Below are positions 22,383 through 26,645 of a DNA stretch of 64,000 bases, piece after piece. The notes below the pieces were generated by a model. The model ran no database searches. It was not told where the DNA came from and saw only the letters and a list, made by a program, of their open reading frames with translations. A program made the translations under genes and the position numbers. The stretch lies in contig JADHTQ010000020.1 in NCBI GenBank assembly GCA_016784965.1, positions 1 through 64,000 of the forward strand. The letters are read 5' to 3'. The DNA is from Bacteriovoracaceae bacterium (GTDB lineage Bacteria; Bdellovibrionota; Bacteriovoracia; Bacteriovoracales; Bacteriovoracaceae). Each line of letters opens with the position of its first letter. The stretch's first letter is position 1.

Positions 22383-22898
22383 ATGGTTACCAGGCATAAT
22401 TACTATTTTTTCTTCGGTATGGTGTTTATTTTTTTGACAGTCGTACTAAGTATTCTAAATTGGAGTACACCATATCTATTAAATTATAAAAAACAACAGG
22501 TTAAAAGCAGTAGGGGGTATAACATAGCTGTAAAAAAAGATTACACTTACAGTGTGCCGTCTAAGAAGCAGATTGATTCAAAAATTTCTAGAGTTAAAAG
22601 TCAAGGAAAGGCCTTTTTATATTTAGCAATTATCATAGCTATTGCTGCCTTTTTGTATGCTCACTTTAAAAACAAAGTATTGTCAGTTCCTAAGCCAATA
22701 AGTAGTGACAGCATTCTATTTCGCAAAATATTAGTTCAACCAAATATTGAATATAATGAAAACATAACTGTTGAAGATATTAAAAGCAAGGACATTCAAG
22801 ACGAAAAAATTGATATTTCTATAGACGATTCTATACTTGTTAGTTTAAAGGATAAAAAAGGTTCTAAGAATATTGAAAATCACGATCATTTACAATAG
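22383..22898 (+). CDS. Two-TM protein of unknown function
   Basis: 171 aa. TM1 spans about residues 8-28 (FFFGMVFIFLTVVLSIL) and TM2 about 79-95 (AFLYLAIIIAIAAFLYAHF), separated by a basic 50-residue loop. The C-terminal 75 residues are hydrophilic with several Asp/Glu/Lys. AAGGA precedes the ATG. No family is recognised. Its 3' end overlaps the convergent mutS2 stop by 13 bases. Confidence 0.6.
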   Translation: MVTRHNYYFFFGMVFIFLTVVLSILNWSTPYLLNYKKQQVKSSRGYNIAVKKDYTYSVPSKKQIDSKISRVKSQGKAFLYLAIIIAIAAFLYAHFKNKVLSVPKPISSDSILFRKILVQPNIEYNENITVEDIKSKDIQDEKIDISIDDSILVSLKDKKGSKNIENHDHLQ

Positions 22899-25270
22899 AT
22901 TTTAGTACATCCATCATTGTATTCATCAGCTTCCCATTTATAATTATCTGACTTTGATAATTTTTGACGTAGCCAACTTTTTAAAATGCCATCACCATGA
23001 CCGTGGATTATACTTAGAAATGGTATATTGCCCATATCTAGATCAACAAGTGACTTCTCAACGGTTGATTGAAATTGTTCAAGGCGCATACCGATACAAT
23101 TAATTTCAAGTGGAGAAACATCTGGTTTATCTAAGTTGATCGTTACTTTGCTTGATGAAACAGATTGTTGGTTACTTGATATCAACCTTAATGTATCGAT
23201 CTTGCATCTGAGATTAATTTTTTTATCTGAAACAGACACTTCATTTTTGCGCTGATTGAAGCTGGTTACCCTTACAACTCTTCCTAAGATTGTAGAAAAA
23301 TAGTTACTATTTACTTTAATATCTTCAGAAGATGGCACACTTGTATATTTATCATAGAGTGGATTATCTGCTTGCAGCTTAGATGAATCATCTCCCAATT
23401 GATTAAGCTGTGATTGAACATTTTTTACTTTTGAAAAAAAGGTTTTCTGGTTTCCCAATTTCTGTGATTTAACATCATTTAAGATTTTTTTTGCTTCACT
23501 GAATGTTTTATCAATTTTTTCTTGAAATTCATTTAATATTTTCTGTTTTTCTAAATGAATTAACCCCTCCATGGATTTTTTTTGGTTTTTAAGTTGAGTA
23601 TTGAGTTGTCTGTTTTTATTAAGCTCACGGTCTAGCTTTGACTTCTTAAAGGTTAACTCTTGTAGTAATGCCTCGTAAGAGAGATGTTTTTTATCAAACA
23701 TCTCTTTAGCACGTTCAGGTATTGGACTTTTTATGCCAAGTTGTCCGGCAATAATTTCAAAGATCAAAAAGGCCATAGAACTTCCAGGCTCCCCGATATT
23801 TAGTTTATATGTAGGCCTATTTCCATCGCGATCAAATCCAACATGGCATGAAATGTAATCATTATTTGAATGCATGAATGTTTTAAAAAATTGATGATGG
23901 CTAGAGATGATAATTTTAGAATCTGATTTTTTATGAATCTCCTCTAAAAAGGCGATGGCAAGAGATGATGCCTCTTCTGAAGAAGTTGAGTTAAAGATTT
24001 CATCTATGACGATTAGATTTTGGCCTGAAAGCTCGCTCAGTAAAGATAAATAATTTCGTGACTCTGAGGCGAAAGAACTAAGACCATCTATGAGGCCTTG
24101 CTGATCGTTACCAAAATAAAATATATTCTCGCAAGGTGTGATATCACCATCTGAGATGGGAAGAAATAGTCCATAGTGTAAAAAAAGGTGACTTAGGGTG
24201 ATGGCCTTGATTGCAACAGTTTTACCCCCAGTGTTGGGACCAGAAACGATAAGTCCTAACTGCTTTGAGGAAATAGAAATAGTATTTTTCACAGGATCTT
24301 CTATCAAAGGATGAAAAAGATCCTGTAAATGAGTTTGAAAATTAGAGTTAATCCTTGGACGTTTTAGATTGAGAGAGTGACAGTACTTACCTTTTGCAAG
24401 CAATAGATCTATCTCGATGAGAAAAGTTTGTGCCTTTTTAATCTGATCGTAGTGATTAAATAGAAATTTACTAAAATCAGAGCAAATTCTACTAAGTATT
24501 TCCTCCAACTCTGCCATTAAATGCTGACGTTTGTTAGACTTGATTTTTATGCTCAAAGGTGTGACAAACAAGGTTAATCCACTTGCAGAACGTGCCATTA
24601 TTGAGCCATGGTCGCTTTTATATGAATCGGAACGAATGGCCAAGACGTAGTGATCATTAACTATATCATGTTCACTAAACTGTAATGCATCAGTGTAAAA
24701 AGGATTTTTTGCTATTTGGTTAATTTCATGTCTAAGTTCTTTTTCTATCTCTTGAATTTTTGTAAATATTTTTGATAGTTCGGGGTGCCGTTGGTAGTTT
24801 ATGGTTCCATTTGGACTGACAAATGAGCGAATTTTGACTATAAAGTTTCTGTTTATTTGATTGAATGCAGTTTGGTCAATTTCAAATTCAGAAGCTTTCA
24901 CCCAGTTTTTGAATTTTTTATAAAGTGATTTGTAAGCTTCAAGAGTGAGGCAAATAAAATTAAGTTCTGCAATAGTTGCAAAATGACCTATTTTAATACG
25001 CTCTATATTTGAAAACATTGCTTTATCTGAGGGAATCTGTTCTATATATTGATAGATATGGCTTGCATCACAGCCAAGCTCATTAAAGAAGAATTCAATT
25101 GAGTCAAATTCATGCTCAATTTGGGAGATATTCTTGGAGGTAATAGGGCGGTTTAGAATTTCTTTTGTCTCATCGAAATGTGCGAGTATAATTATTCTAT
25201 TAACAATGTATCCCCAATCAAGGAGATCCAACTCAGATTGATTATTTATATTAAGAAGATTAAACGCCAT
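22886..25270 (-). CDS. mutS2: MutS2 ATPase with C-terminal Smr nuclease domain
   Basis: 794 aa, the usual MutS2 length. Core features: a MutS-type ATPase with Walker A GPNTGGKT (near residue 342), Walker B LIVIDEIFNSTS and signature ESRNYLSLLSEL; a long coiled coil (about 530-620); and a C-terminal Smr domain with LEINCIGMRLEQF and IIHGHGDGILKSWLR. Known members act on collided or stalled ribosomes or suppress recombination, not mismatch repair. The ATG at 25270 lies in the CATG that also starts the divergent NFACT gene, an arrangement that fits a joint role in ribosome rescue. No clear ribosome binding site precedes it. Confidence 0.93.
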   Translation of the reverse strand: MAFNLLNINNQSELDLLDWGYIVNRIIILAHFDETKEILNRPITSKNISQIEHEFDSIEFFFNELGCDASHIYQYIEQIPSDKAMFSNIERIKIGHFATIAELNFICLTLEAYKSLYKKFKNWVKASEFEIDQTAFNQINRNFIVKIRSFVSPNGTINYQRHPELSKIFTKIQEIEKELRHEINQIAKNPFYTDALQFSEHDIVNDHYVLAIRSDSYKSDHGSIMARSASGLTLFVTPLSIKIKSNKRQHLMAELEEILSRICSDFSKFLFNHYDQIKKAQTFLIEIDLLLAKGKYCHSLNLKRPRINSNFQTHLQDLFHPLIEDPVKNTISISSKQLGLIVSGPNTGGKTVAIKAITLSHLFLHYGLFLPISDGDITPCENIFYFGNDQQGLIDGLSSFASESRNYLSLLSELSGQNLIVIDEIFNSTSSEEASSLAIAFLEEIHKKSDSKIIISSHHQFFKTFMHSNNDYISCHVGFDRDGNRPTYKLNIGEPGSSMAFLIFEIIAGQLGIKSPIPERAKEMFDKKHLSYEALLQELTFKKSKLDRELNKNRQLNTQLKNQKKSMEGLIHLEKQKILNEFQEKIDKTFSEAKKILNDVKSQKLGNQKTFFSKVKNVQSQLNQLGDDSSKLQADNPLYDKYTSVPSSEDIKVNSNYFSTILGRVVRVTSFNQRKNEVSVSDKKINLRCKIDTLRLISSNQQSVSSSKVTINLDKPDVSPLEINCIGMRLEQFQSTVEKSLVDLDMGNIPFLSIIHGHGDGILKSWLRQKLSKSDNYKWEADEYNDGCTKIYCK

Positions 25271-25271
25271 G
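25268..25271. promoter_or_regulatory. Overlapping divergent start codons (CATG)
   Basis: Minus-strand ATG of mutS2 (25270-25268) and plus-strand ATG of the NFACT gene (25269-25271) overlap by two bases in one CATG. No intergenic DNA exists, so each gene's promoter and leader must lie in the other's coding sequence. A plus-strand TATATT at 25247-25252 could be the -10 of the NFACT gene and would give a leader of about 10 bases. Confidence 0.7.
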
Positions 25272-26645
25272 ATACAAAACTATAACACGTTAAAAGCTAA
25301 CATATATAATTATAATAGTATATTTTTGTCTGGAAAAGAAAACATATTTGGAAAGATCCAAAAGATTTACAGTTCACCTCACTTGATTTGTCTAACTGTA
25401 AGGTTTCCAGGTAATACCAGATATTTATACTTAGGTAGGGGAAACCACTATGAGGGTATATGGGAGGGAAGTAAAATTCCGCCATCTGAAATCAGAATTC
25501 GTGAAAGATTTTTAGAATATTTCCGGAAATATTTAAAGGGTGCAACAACCGGTAAGATTATATTAGATGAATTAGACCGAATTGTGACGATCCCATATTT
25601 TAAAGATGGTCGGCAACAATACATCTCTTTTTTTTATAAAGGTCGCTCTCTATATTTTTTGAATATTTATTATAAAAAAGGTTGGAAAATTTTCCTATCA
25701 TGGCAGTTACTTAAAAAAGACTCAATTGTTATTGAGGGCGAAATTGAAGATAGTGTATATAAAATCATCTATGGTTACTTCGATCAGCTTGGAAGACGTG
25801 ATGTAAAAGATAAAGAACAAAAGTCCGAACCTTGTATGTCAATAGACGACTATTTTGCAAAGGAAAAAAAGAGGTATCAAACCAATAAATTACCCAAGCG
25901 AAAAATGAAATATCTACAAAGAAAAGAAGTACGTATTGCACAGGATTTAAAAAAAGTAAAAAAATGGAAGGAGCTTAAACAGTTGATTGAGGAGCAAAAT
26001 TTTGAGTTTATCAGTGATACATTTTGTGGGTATAAATTTAAGTTTGATAAGGAGTGGAATCATTACAAAAAGTTAGATTTAGTTTATAAAAAAATAAAGA
26101 GATTAAAGATGGCAGAGGAGCTTCTAACAAAAAGGATACAGGAGCATAAAAAGATATGTGAAAGAGCAATTAAGGAACAAAATATAGGTGGAGAGACCAC
26201 GAAGATAAAATATATCTCTCCAGTTTGGCATACTCCTAAGCTAAAAAAAATGAATGGAATTGATGTTAAAAAAGATATCGTGGAGTTTACTTTTTCGGAG
26301 GGTACGACAGCTGCAGTCGGGAAAAATGTACATGCAAATGACTATTTAAGAAATGTCTGGAGTAAAAAATCCCATTACTGGTTCCACATTGAAGGTTATA
26401 AAAGTGGTCATCTCATTGTTAAAACCGATGATATTACTTGGTTTAGTGAAAATGACTTTATGGTGCTTGGCTCAATCTTAAAAGATTACGCAGGACTTGA
26501 AATAGATATGATACCCTTGATATATACTCAGGTAAAAAATATCAAGGGCCTAAAGGGTTCTGCTGGTAGCGTAACATACAAAAAAGCAAAATTTATTAAA
26601 GTCAAATATCTAAAAATTTGGCGTGATTATATTTCATTTGATTAG
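25269..26645 (+). CDS. rqcH: NFACT-family protein, RqcH-type ribosome quality control factor
   Basis: 458 aa, shorter than Bacillus RqcH (about 570). N-terminal NFACT-N: GKIQKIYSSPHLICLTVRFPG and the Asp-Arg pair (Asp103-Arg104 in ILDELDRIV), which in RqcH is needed for alanine tailing. A coiled-coil middle (about 220-300) follows, then NFACT-R: ANDYLRNVWSKKSHYWFHIEGYKSGHLIVK and TQVKNIKGLKGSAGSVTY. Such proteins bind 60S/50S-nascent chain complexes and recruit Ala-tRNA. About 28 residues precede the GKIQKIY motif, which matches the family start. The shorter length suggests a trimmed helix-hairpin or middle region. Confidence 0.85.
   Translation: MIQNYNTLKANIYNYNSIFLSGKENIFGKIQKIYSSPHLICLTVRFPGNTRYLYLGRGNHYEGIWEGSKIPPSEIRIRERFLEYFRKYLKGATTGKIILDELDRIVTIPYFKDGRQQYISFFYKGRSLYFLNIYYKKGWKIFLSWQLLKKDSIVIEGEIEDSVYKIIYGYFDQLGRRDVKDKEQKSEPCMSIDDYFAKEKKRYQTNKLPKRKMKYLQRKEVRIAQDLKKVKKWKELKQLIEEQNFEFISDTFCGYKFKFDKEWNHYKKLDLVYKKIKRLKMAEELLTKRIQEHKKICERAIKEQNIGGETTKIKYISPVWHTPKLKKMNGIDVKKDIVEFTFSEGTTAAVGKNVHANDYLRNVWSKKSHYWFHIEGYKSGHLIVKTDDITWFSENDFMVLGSILKDYAGLEIDMIPLIYTQVKNIKGLKGSAGSVTYKKAKFIKVKYLKIWRDYISFD

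What the first reader, a model, noticed from the sequence alone, without database searches (positions are those of the whole stretch)
25260..25280. mutS2 and rqcH share a CATG: overlapping divergent start codons
The two ATG codons overlap by two bases on opposite strands. Both products are established or proposed actors in bacterial ribosome quality control (MutS2 on collided ribosomes, RqcH tailing the nascent chain). Head-to-head overlap forces promoters into each other's coding region and may couple or oppose their expression. Neither gene has a good ribosome binding site, which suggests leaderless or short-leader mRNAs.
Basis: partly seen in the sequence, partly recalled or inferred. Interest (0 to 1): 0.62.

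Follow-up and report, generated by a model that had tools for sequence, protein, structure and literature searches.

The report
Conserved head-to-head mutS2–rqcH start overlap
In Bacteriovorax-type predatory bacteria, two genes thought to clear stalled ribosomes point away from each other and share a single CATG as both their start codons; the arrangement is old and widely kept, and each gene's likely on-switch lies inside the other gene.

Summary
mutS2 (22886-25270, -) and a short RqcH/NEMF-like gene (25269-26645, +) share CATG at 25268-25271.

It is not an accident of one genome. In the same family, mutS2 sits head-to-head upstream of rqcH in 106 of 117 loci examined. The exact CATG occurs in 67 of those 106 (29 of 37 genera); one genus has abutting starts (CATATG) in 24 more. 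Linkage also occurs in three other families of the phylum, with separated starts, and as a tandem rqcH-mutS2 pair in a fourth.

Each gene's likely promoter lies inside its partner's coding sequence, firing toward the other. The window has strong sigma70-like boxes 76 nt before rqcH and 38 nt before mutS2. Boxes at the same distances in a related genus exceed synonymous-codon shuffles. This predicts leaders of about 70 and 32 nt and complementary 5' ends, not leaderless mRNAs, in this genome.

The frozen CATG alone does not prove regulation: spacing changes on the tree (11) are not fewer than the small target predicts. Expression coupling is untested.

The parts
25268..25271 (.). CATG that carries both start codons (mutS2 ATG on -, rqcH ATG on +)
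   Evidence: sequence; same CATG in 67 of 106 linked loci of the family
22886..25270 (-). mutS2, 794 aa, MutS domain V and C-terminal Smr domain
   Evidence: TIGR01069 413.5 bits, cut-off 400; MutS_V and Smr over Pfam cut-offs
25269..26645 (+). rqcH-like gene, 458 aa, short NFACT/NEMF protein
   Evidence: profile of 28 relatives hits PDB RqcH at E 1.5e-15; AlphaFold model best matches RqcH/NEMF, E 8e-16; NFACT domains below Pfam gathering score
25165..25192 (+). predicted rqcH promoter inside mutS2: TTGTCT-16-TATAAT, -10 ends 76 nt before the rqcH ATG
   Evidence: 10 of 12 consensus; about 0.008% of window + strand positions score as high; box at the same distance in genus g15, real 4.5 vs shuffled -1.8, z 8.2
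25309..25336 (-). predicted mutS2 promoter inside rqcH: TTTCCA-16-TATAAT, -10 ends 38 nt before the mutS2 ATG
   Evidence: 10 of 12 consensus; about 0.03% of window - strand positions score as high; box at the same distance in g15, z 4.1 to 5.4, best antisense -10 of the whole g15 rqcH gene
25199..25302 (.). predicted overlap of the two mRNA 5' ends (about 104 nt), if transcription starts 7 nt after each -10 box
   Evidence: inference from the two predicted promoters; no transcript data

Best explanation
This is an old, stably linked divergent pair of ribosome-quality-control genes in the Bacteriovorax/Halobacteriovorax family. SHOWN: the two genes are head-to-head with start codons fused in CATG; the state dominates the family; both genes lack a good Shine-Dalgarno site in most genera. 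SUPPORTED BY PREDICTION: each gene is transcribed from a sigma70-like promoter buried in the partner's first 10-35 codons, so the promoters face each other and the two mRNAs overlap at their 5' ends (about 104 nt in the window genome; mutS2 mRNA nearly leaderless in several other genera). INFERRED: because neither gene can be moved without losing its promoter, and because neither ATG can mutate without killing the partner's, the pair is held together by geometry. This keeps the collided-ribosome splitter (MutS2) and the nascent-chain tailing factor (RqcH) inherited together. Mutual interference between the facing promoters, or pairing of the complementary leaders, would follow physically but has not been shown.
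For: Conservation: 106 of 117 loci linked, 67 CATG, 24 CATATG. On a 103-locus tree CATG needs only 9 changes. Buried promoters: both window boxes and the same distances in g15. Best antisense -10 box of the whole gene: nt 41 of 1,299 positions (g15 rqcH), nt 79 of 2,364 (g15 mutS2), nt 73 of 2,358 (g25 mutS2), nt 95 of 2,352 (g3 mutS2). Genus-weighted: the best antisense promoter-like site of rqcH lies in its first 60 nt in 29% of 29 genera, expected 4.3%, sense-strand control 10.5%, binomial p 1.8e-4. Synonymous codons are conserved in the first 30 codons of rqcH (g15, g3, g25) and in parts of mutS2's 5' end; in g15 the pair ranks 1 and 2 of 11 neighbouring genes for this. Pathway link: 97% of rqcH genomes encode mutS2, and MutS2 splits collided ribosomes upstream of RqcH (PMC11633108, PMC10897456; passages read). 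Linkage in other families, in two arrangements.
Against: A -10-only shuffle test over 30 genera gave no significant window (z 1.1 and 0.6 at best). In g25 the 5' synonymous conservation of the pair is only rank 3-4 of 9 genes. For rqcH's promoter in mutS2, the whole-gene test is not significant family-wide (11% vs 5% expected, sense control 12%). Within-genus z values are inflated by shared ancestry. The consensus is E. coli-like. No transcript data were available. In 10 genomes rqcH survives without a neighbouring mutS2 (an eleventh, L063, is a contig end), so the linkage is not essential.
Confidence: 0.6

Rival explanations
1. The overlap is kept because it works as a switch: the two facing promoters or the complementary leaders make expression of MutS2 and RqcH mutually exclusive or balanced.
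For: Facing promoters about 100 bp apart are predicted in the window. Competition at bidirectional promoters is reported in E. coli when one direction is strongly activated (PMC12825309, abstract). Both genes act in one pathway (PMC11633108, PMC10897456, passages).
Against: Spacing changed 11 times on a tree of 67 substitutions per site, against 23 length changes in the 25-residue rqcH N-terminus and 18 in mutS2's; for a target of a few nucleotides that is not fewer than expected. About ten lineages lost the exact overlap or the linkage. Promoter distances differ between genera.
Confidence: 0.22
2. Pure lock-in: the overlap arose once by start-codon drift and cannot be undone by substitution, so it persists with no regulatory role; the promoters merely had to settle in partner coding sequence.
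For: A substitution in the shared AT destroys both starts; escape needs an insertion that duplicates AT, as in CATATG of g25. The number of spacing changes fits a small target.
Against: Does not explain linkage of the same two genes in other families, with separated starts or in tandem, nor codon-level promoter constraint.
Confidence: 0.35
3. Both mRNAs are leaderless, starting at the shared CATG.
For: No SD for mutS2 in 97% of genera. In several genera mutS2's best promoter-like site has its -10 exactly 8 nt from the ATG; in g25 the full-site score there is 8.0 vs 5.4 shuffled, z 6.3; family-wide window 4-14 nt t 2.6, and 2.45 in 27 genera not used to form the idea.
Against: In the window no site above score 5 lies at that distance. 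The d=8 peak is largely dictated by the conserved peptide (real 0.47, shuffled 0.45). For rqcH the supported boxes lie 63-95 nt upstream. g15 mutS2 has an SD-like site (-6.7) and a -10 at 38 nt.
Confidence: 0.2
4. One start is misassigned and the true starts do not overlap.
For: Start codons were assigned by alignment, not by proteomics.
Against: In the window the next in-frame candidate starts are only TTG codons 39 or more nt inside. Homology reaches residue 1 on both sides in many relatives.
Confidence: 0.04

Closest known systems
Bacterial RQC module MutS2 (RqcU) and RqcH of Bacillus subtilis
   Same: Same two protein families; MutS2 splits collided ribosomes and RqcH tails the nascent chain (PMC10897456, PMC11633108, passages)
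   Different: Here the genes share start codons. The RqcH-like protein is about 110 residues shorter and falls below Pfam's NFACT gathering scores
Divergent (head-to-head) overlapping gene pairs of prokaryotes
   Same: Overlap of opposite-strand 5' ends; PMC2174442 (passages) counts 331 divergent among 14,958 overlaps in 58 species and calls them strongly under-represented
   Different: A 2-nt start-codon overlap kept in 29 of 37 genera of one family, in one named pathway
Bidirectional promoters of Escherichia coli (Warman et al.)
   Same: Two opposed RNA polymerase sites compete for one stretch of DNA (PMC12825309, abstract)
   Different: There pseudo-symmetric boxes lie between diverging starts; here the predicted promoters face each other from inside the two genes and the transcripts overlap
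Excludon-type antisense leader overlap (recalled, no call)
   Same: Complementary 5' mRNA ends of divergent genes
   Different: Predicted overlap of about 100 nt is short, and transcripts were not observed

Membership tests
MutS2 (TIGR01069) | whole-protein score over the curated cut-off | tested here: met
   413.5 bits vs 400
MutS2 (TIGR01069) | MutS V ATPase domain plus C-terminal Smr domain | tested here: met
   both over Pfam cut-offs
RqcH / NFACT | NFACT-N and NFACT-R over Pfam gathering score | tested here: not met
   19.4 vs 31 and 22.7 vs 29.8 bits; therefore called RqcH-like
RqcH / NFACT | sequence profile and fold match solved RqcH | tested here: met
   hmmsearch E 1.5e-15 to 7aqc RqcH; Foldseek top hits RqcH, NEMF and Rqc2, E 8e-16; whole-chain TM is low (0.28), which I put down to the flexible coiled coil
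RqcH / NFACT | alanine tailing of 50S-bound nascent chains | not testable with these tools
   needs biochemistry
Leaderless mRNA | no SD and a -10 box about 7 nt before the ATG | tested here: not met
   SD absent, but no site above score 5 at that distance in the window
Bidirectional promoter sensu Warman | shared pseudo-symmetric boxes between diverging start points | tested here: not met
   predicted promoters face each other from 25165-25192 (+) and 25336-25309 (-)
Conserved divergent overlapping pair | overlap retained in relatives | tested here: met
   67 of 106 CATG, 24 of 106 CATATG

The most novel reading that the evidence does not exclude
A built-in see-saw for ribosome quality control: two promoters buried in each other's genes fire head-on across a shared start codon, so that making the ribosome splitter MutS2 opposes making the nascent-chain tailer RqcH. 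Selection for this balance, and not only mutational lock-in, would then have kept the CATG through the diversification of a whole family of predatory bacteria.
Probability: 0.18. Interest if true: 0.7.

Novelty: new variant of a known kind. Interest (0 to 1): 0.5.

Why it matters
mutS2 and rqcH were linked by genome co-occurrence (PMC11633108). Here they are physical neighbours in two different arrangements within one phylum, and in one family their start codons are fused. This is independent genomic support that they form one pathway outside Firmicutes. It also offers a compact natural test of what happens when two promoters must be written inside each other's protein code.

Tried and rejected
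A -10-only synonymous-shuffle test over 30 genera was negative; the full-site, per-genus and whole-gene tests followed, so several versions of the promoter test were run. Windows were chosen partly after seeing g1, g15 and g25, which is why repeats the test without them (mutS2 promoter at 4-14 nt t 2.45; rqcH promoter at 63-82 nt t 2.62 and 31-46 nt t 2.73; 12 windows tested in all).

Idea that unlinked rqcH (G017) keeps a relic of the mutS2 start upstream: rejected, 35 of 200 shuffles scored as high. Idea that Tyr5 of rqcH is kept only as a -10 box of mutS2: not pursued, too few unlinked lineages (read by eye). Idea that the spacing is under strong purifying selection: not supported. Co-occurrence test (114 both, 6 rqcH only, 0 mutS2 only, 9 neither, entered by hand): p 2e-10 is inflated, because the genes are adjacent and only 2 of the 9 'neither' genomes are at least 90% complete.

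Rows dropped: of 121 family genomes with an rqcH match, 4 with fragments or a marginal hit (G001, G091, G137, G008) were not fetched. One search used 117 of the 123 loci then held (6 duplicates left out). The tree used 103 of 106 linked loci (L036, L072, L117 left out). Promoter tests used the 91 CATG/CATATG loci (89 for mutS2).
Full report
OBSERVATION. CATG lies at 25268-25271. The minus-strand ATG opens a 794-aa frame (22886-25270) and the plus-strand ATG a 458-aa frame (25269-26645). The first is MutS2: TIGR01069 413.5 bits, cut-off 400, with MutS_V and Smr domains. The second is a short RqcH/NEMF-like protein. Pfam NFACT domains are below gathering score. A profile of 28 family members hits PDB RqcH at 1.5e-15. 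An AlphaFold2 model (mean pLDDT 88.1, pTM 0.54) has RqcH, NEMF and yeast RQC chains as its best PDB matches. It aligns in two parts to RqcH and is about 110 residues shorter than the 570-residue B. subtilis chain.

WHERE IT IS FROM. Loci with names found by the same protein family include Bacteriovorax, Halobacteriovorax marinus, Bacteriovoracaceae and Halobacteriovoraceae assemblies, phylum Bdellovibrionota.

CONSERVATION. The family rqcH profile matches 121 of 129 family genomes (45 of 48 genera). I examined 117 loci. In 106 mutS2 lies head-to-head upstream. In 67 of these (29 of 37 genera) both ATGs share CATG; in 24, all in genus g25, they abut as CATATG; 15 have other spacing, some of them start-choice or assembly problems. 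Eleven have no adjacent mutS2 (one of these is a contig end). On a tree of 103 loci the CATG label needs 9 changes. Named loci show the same: 26 CATG, 11 CATATG, 3 other of 40 checked (largely the same assemblies).

OUTSIDE THE FAMILY. Three of 20 outgroup stretches carry the same head-to-head pair, with starts separated by 19 nt (L163), 24 nt (L162) and roughly 100 nt (L161). By coordinates, 9 of the 31 genomes are linked: G309, G311, G360, G361 and G363 head-to-head (three of these are the stretches just named), and G042, G056, G366 and G367, all of family f7, as a tandem with rqcH upstream of mutS2. G310 is unresolved at contig ends. In the other 21 the genes lie on different contigs or tens of kilobases or more apart.

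TRANSLATION SIGNALS. Anti-SD pairing is weak at both window starts. Across genera it is at or below -4.4 kcal/mol in 22% (rqcH) and 3% (mutS2), against 50% of 42 window ORFs and 20% of random internal positions. The exception is g15 mutS2 (-6.7).

PROMOTERS. The scan finds TTGTCT-16-TATAAT at 25165-25192 (+) and TTTCCA-16-TATAAT at 25336-25309 (-). Six such sites were found in 700 bp against 3.1 (sd 1.9) in shuffles, so the count alone is weak. Scored by matrix, these two are in the top 0.008% and 0.03% of positions of their strands in the window, and nothing else above score 5 lies nearer to either start. With synonymous-codon shuffles as null, g15 shows boxes at exactly the same distances, 76 nt (z 8.2) and 38 nt (z 4.1-5.4); g25 shows 72 nt (z 9.8) for rqcH and 8 nt (full site z 6.3) for mutS2. 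In whole-gene antisense scans the top box is the one near the start for g15 rqcH, g15 mutS2, g25 mutS2 and g3 mutS2. For g25 rqcH it is not (rank 6; the top sites lie at the 3' end), nor for g3 rqcH (rank 2), g61 rqcH (rank 2) or g61 mutS2 (none). In g25 the mutS2 box is the highest-scoring of the sites passing score 4 and z 4 among 20,196 positions in 9 genes; in g15 no position met the corresponding thresholds in that version of the test. Genus-weighted, the rqcH side is significant (29% vs 4.3%, sense control 10.5%, p 1.8e-4) and the mutS2 side is not (11% vs 5%, sense control 12%). A simpler -10-only test was negative.

CODON CONSTRAINT. Synonymous codons are unusually conserved in the first 30 codons of rqcH in g15, g3 and g25, and in codons 2-11 (g15, g3) or 17-41 (g25) of mutS2; g61 shows it only in codons 17-31 of rqcH and 22-41 of mutS2. 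Against neighbouring genes the pair ranks 1 and 2 of 11 in g15 but only 3 and 4 of 9 in g25.

IS THE CATG ITSELF SELECTED? Not shown. On a tree of 67 substitutions per site the spacing changed 11 times, while the rqcH N-terminus up to its IQKI motif changed length 23 times and mutS2's N-terminus 18 times. The junction is a target of a few bases, so 11 is not fewer than neutral expectation by my rough arithmetic. Lock-in is enough to explain the exact overlap, because substitutions in the shared bases kill both starts. What needs explaining is the linkage, which recurs in other families and arrangements.

LITERATURE. PMC11633108 (passages) reports that 97% of rqcH genomes encode mutS2 and finds each gene in 5 of 6 Bdellovibrionota. 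PMC10897456 and PMC11317155 (passages) place MutS2 splitting upstream of RqcH. PMC2174442 (passages) reports that divergent overlaps are strongly under-represented. PMC12825309 (abstract and outline) describes competition at bidirectional promoters. Searches for MutS2 with RqcH (6 papers), NFACT with MutS2 (1 paper) and RqcH with the predator genera (10 of 114 papers listed, none of the 10 holding RqcH) listed no paper whose title or opening of the abstract describes this linkage; passages were read in three of these papers. Subscription papers are not covered.

VERDICT. A real, conserved and under-described arrangement. The reciprocal buried promoters are the best-supported mechanism. Regulatory coupling remains a hypothesis.

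Noticed in passing
window 22886-22898: The mutS2 3' end overlaps the 3' end of a convergent 171-aa plus-strand ORF (22383-22898) by 13 nt, so mutS2 overlaps a neighbour at both ends.
   Followed up: no
L109, L111, L120, L113, L119, L096: Where rqcH is unlinked from mutS2, the upstream co-directional ORF in three genera (g8, g24, g62) looks like signal peptidase I (lepB; name by eye, not searched).
   Followed up: no
G327, G343, G354 (family f8): rqcH and mutS2 are not adjacent but lie about 26-33 kb apart on the same contig in three genomes.
   Followed up: no
L064-L092 (genus g15 loci among them): g15 is the one genus with a clear SD-like GGTGAG before mutS2, written inside rqcH codons 4-6, and it is the genus whose mutS2 -10 box lies at 38 nt, not 8 nt.
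   Followed up: partly
L123 / L028 (G026): rqcH carries a long in-frame insertion between the coiled coil and the NFACT-R domain.
   Followed up: no
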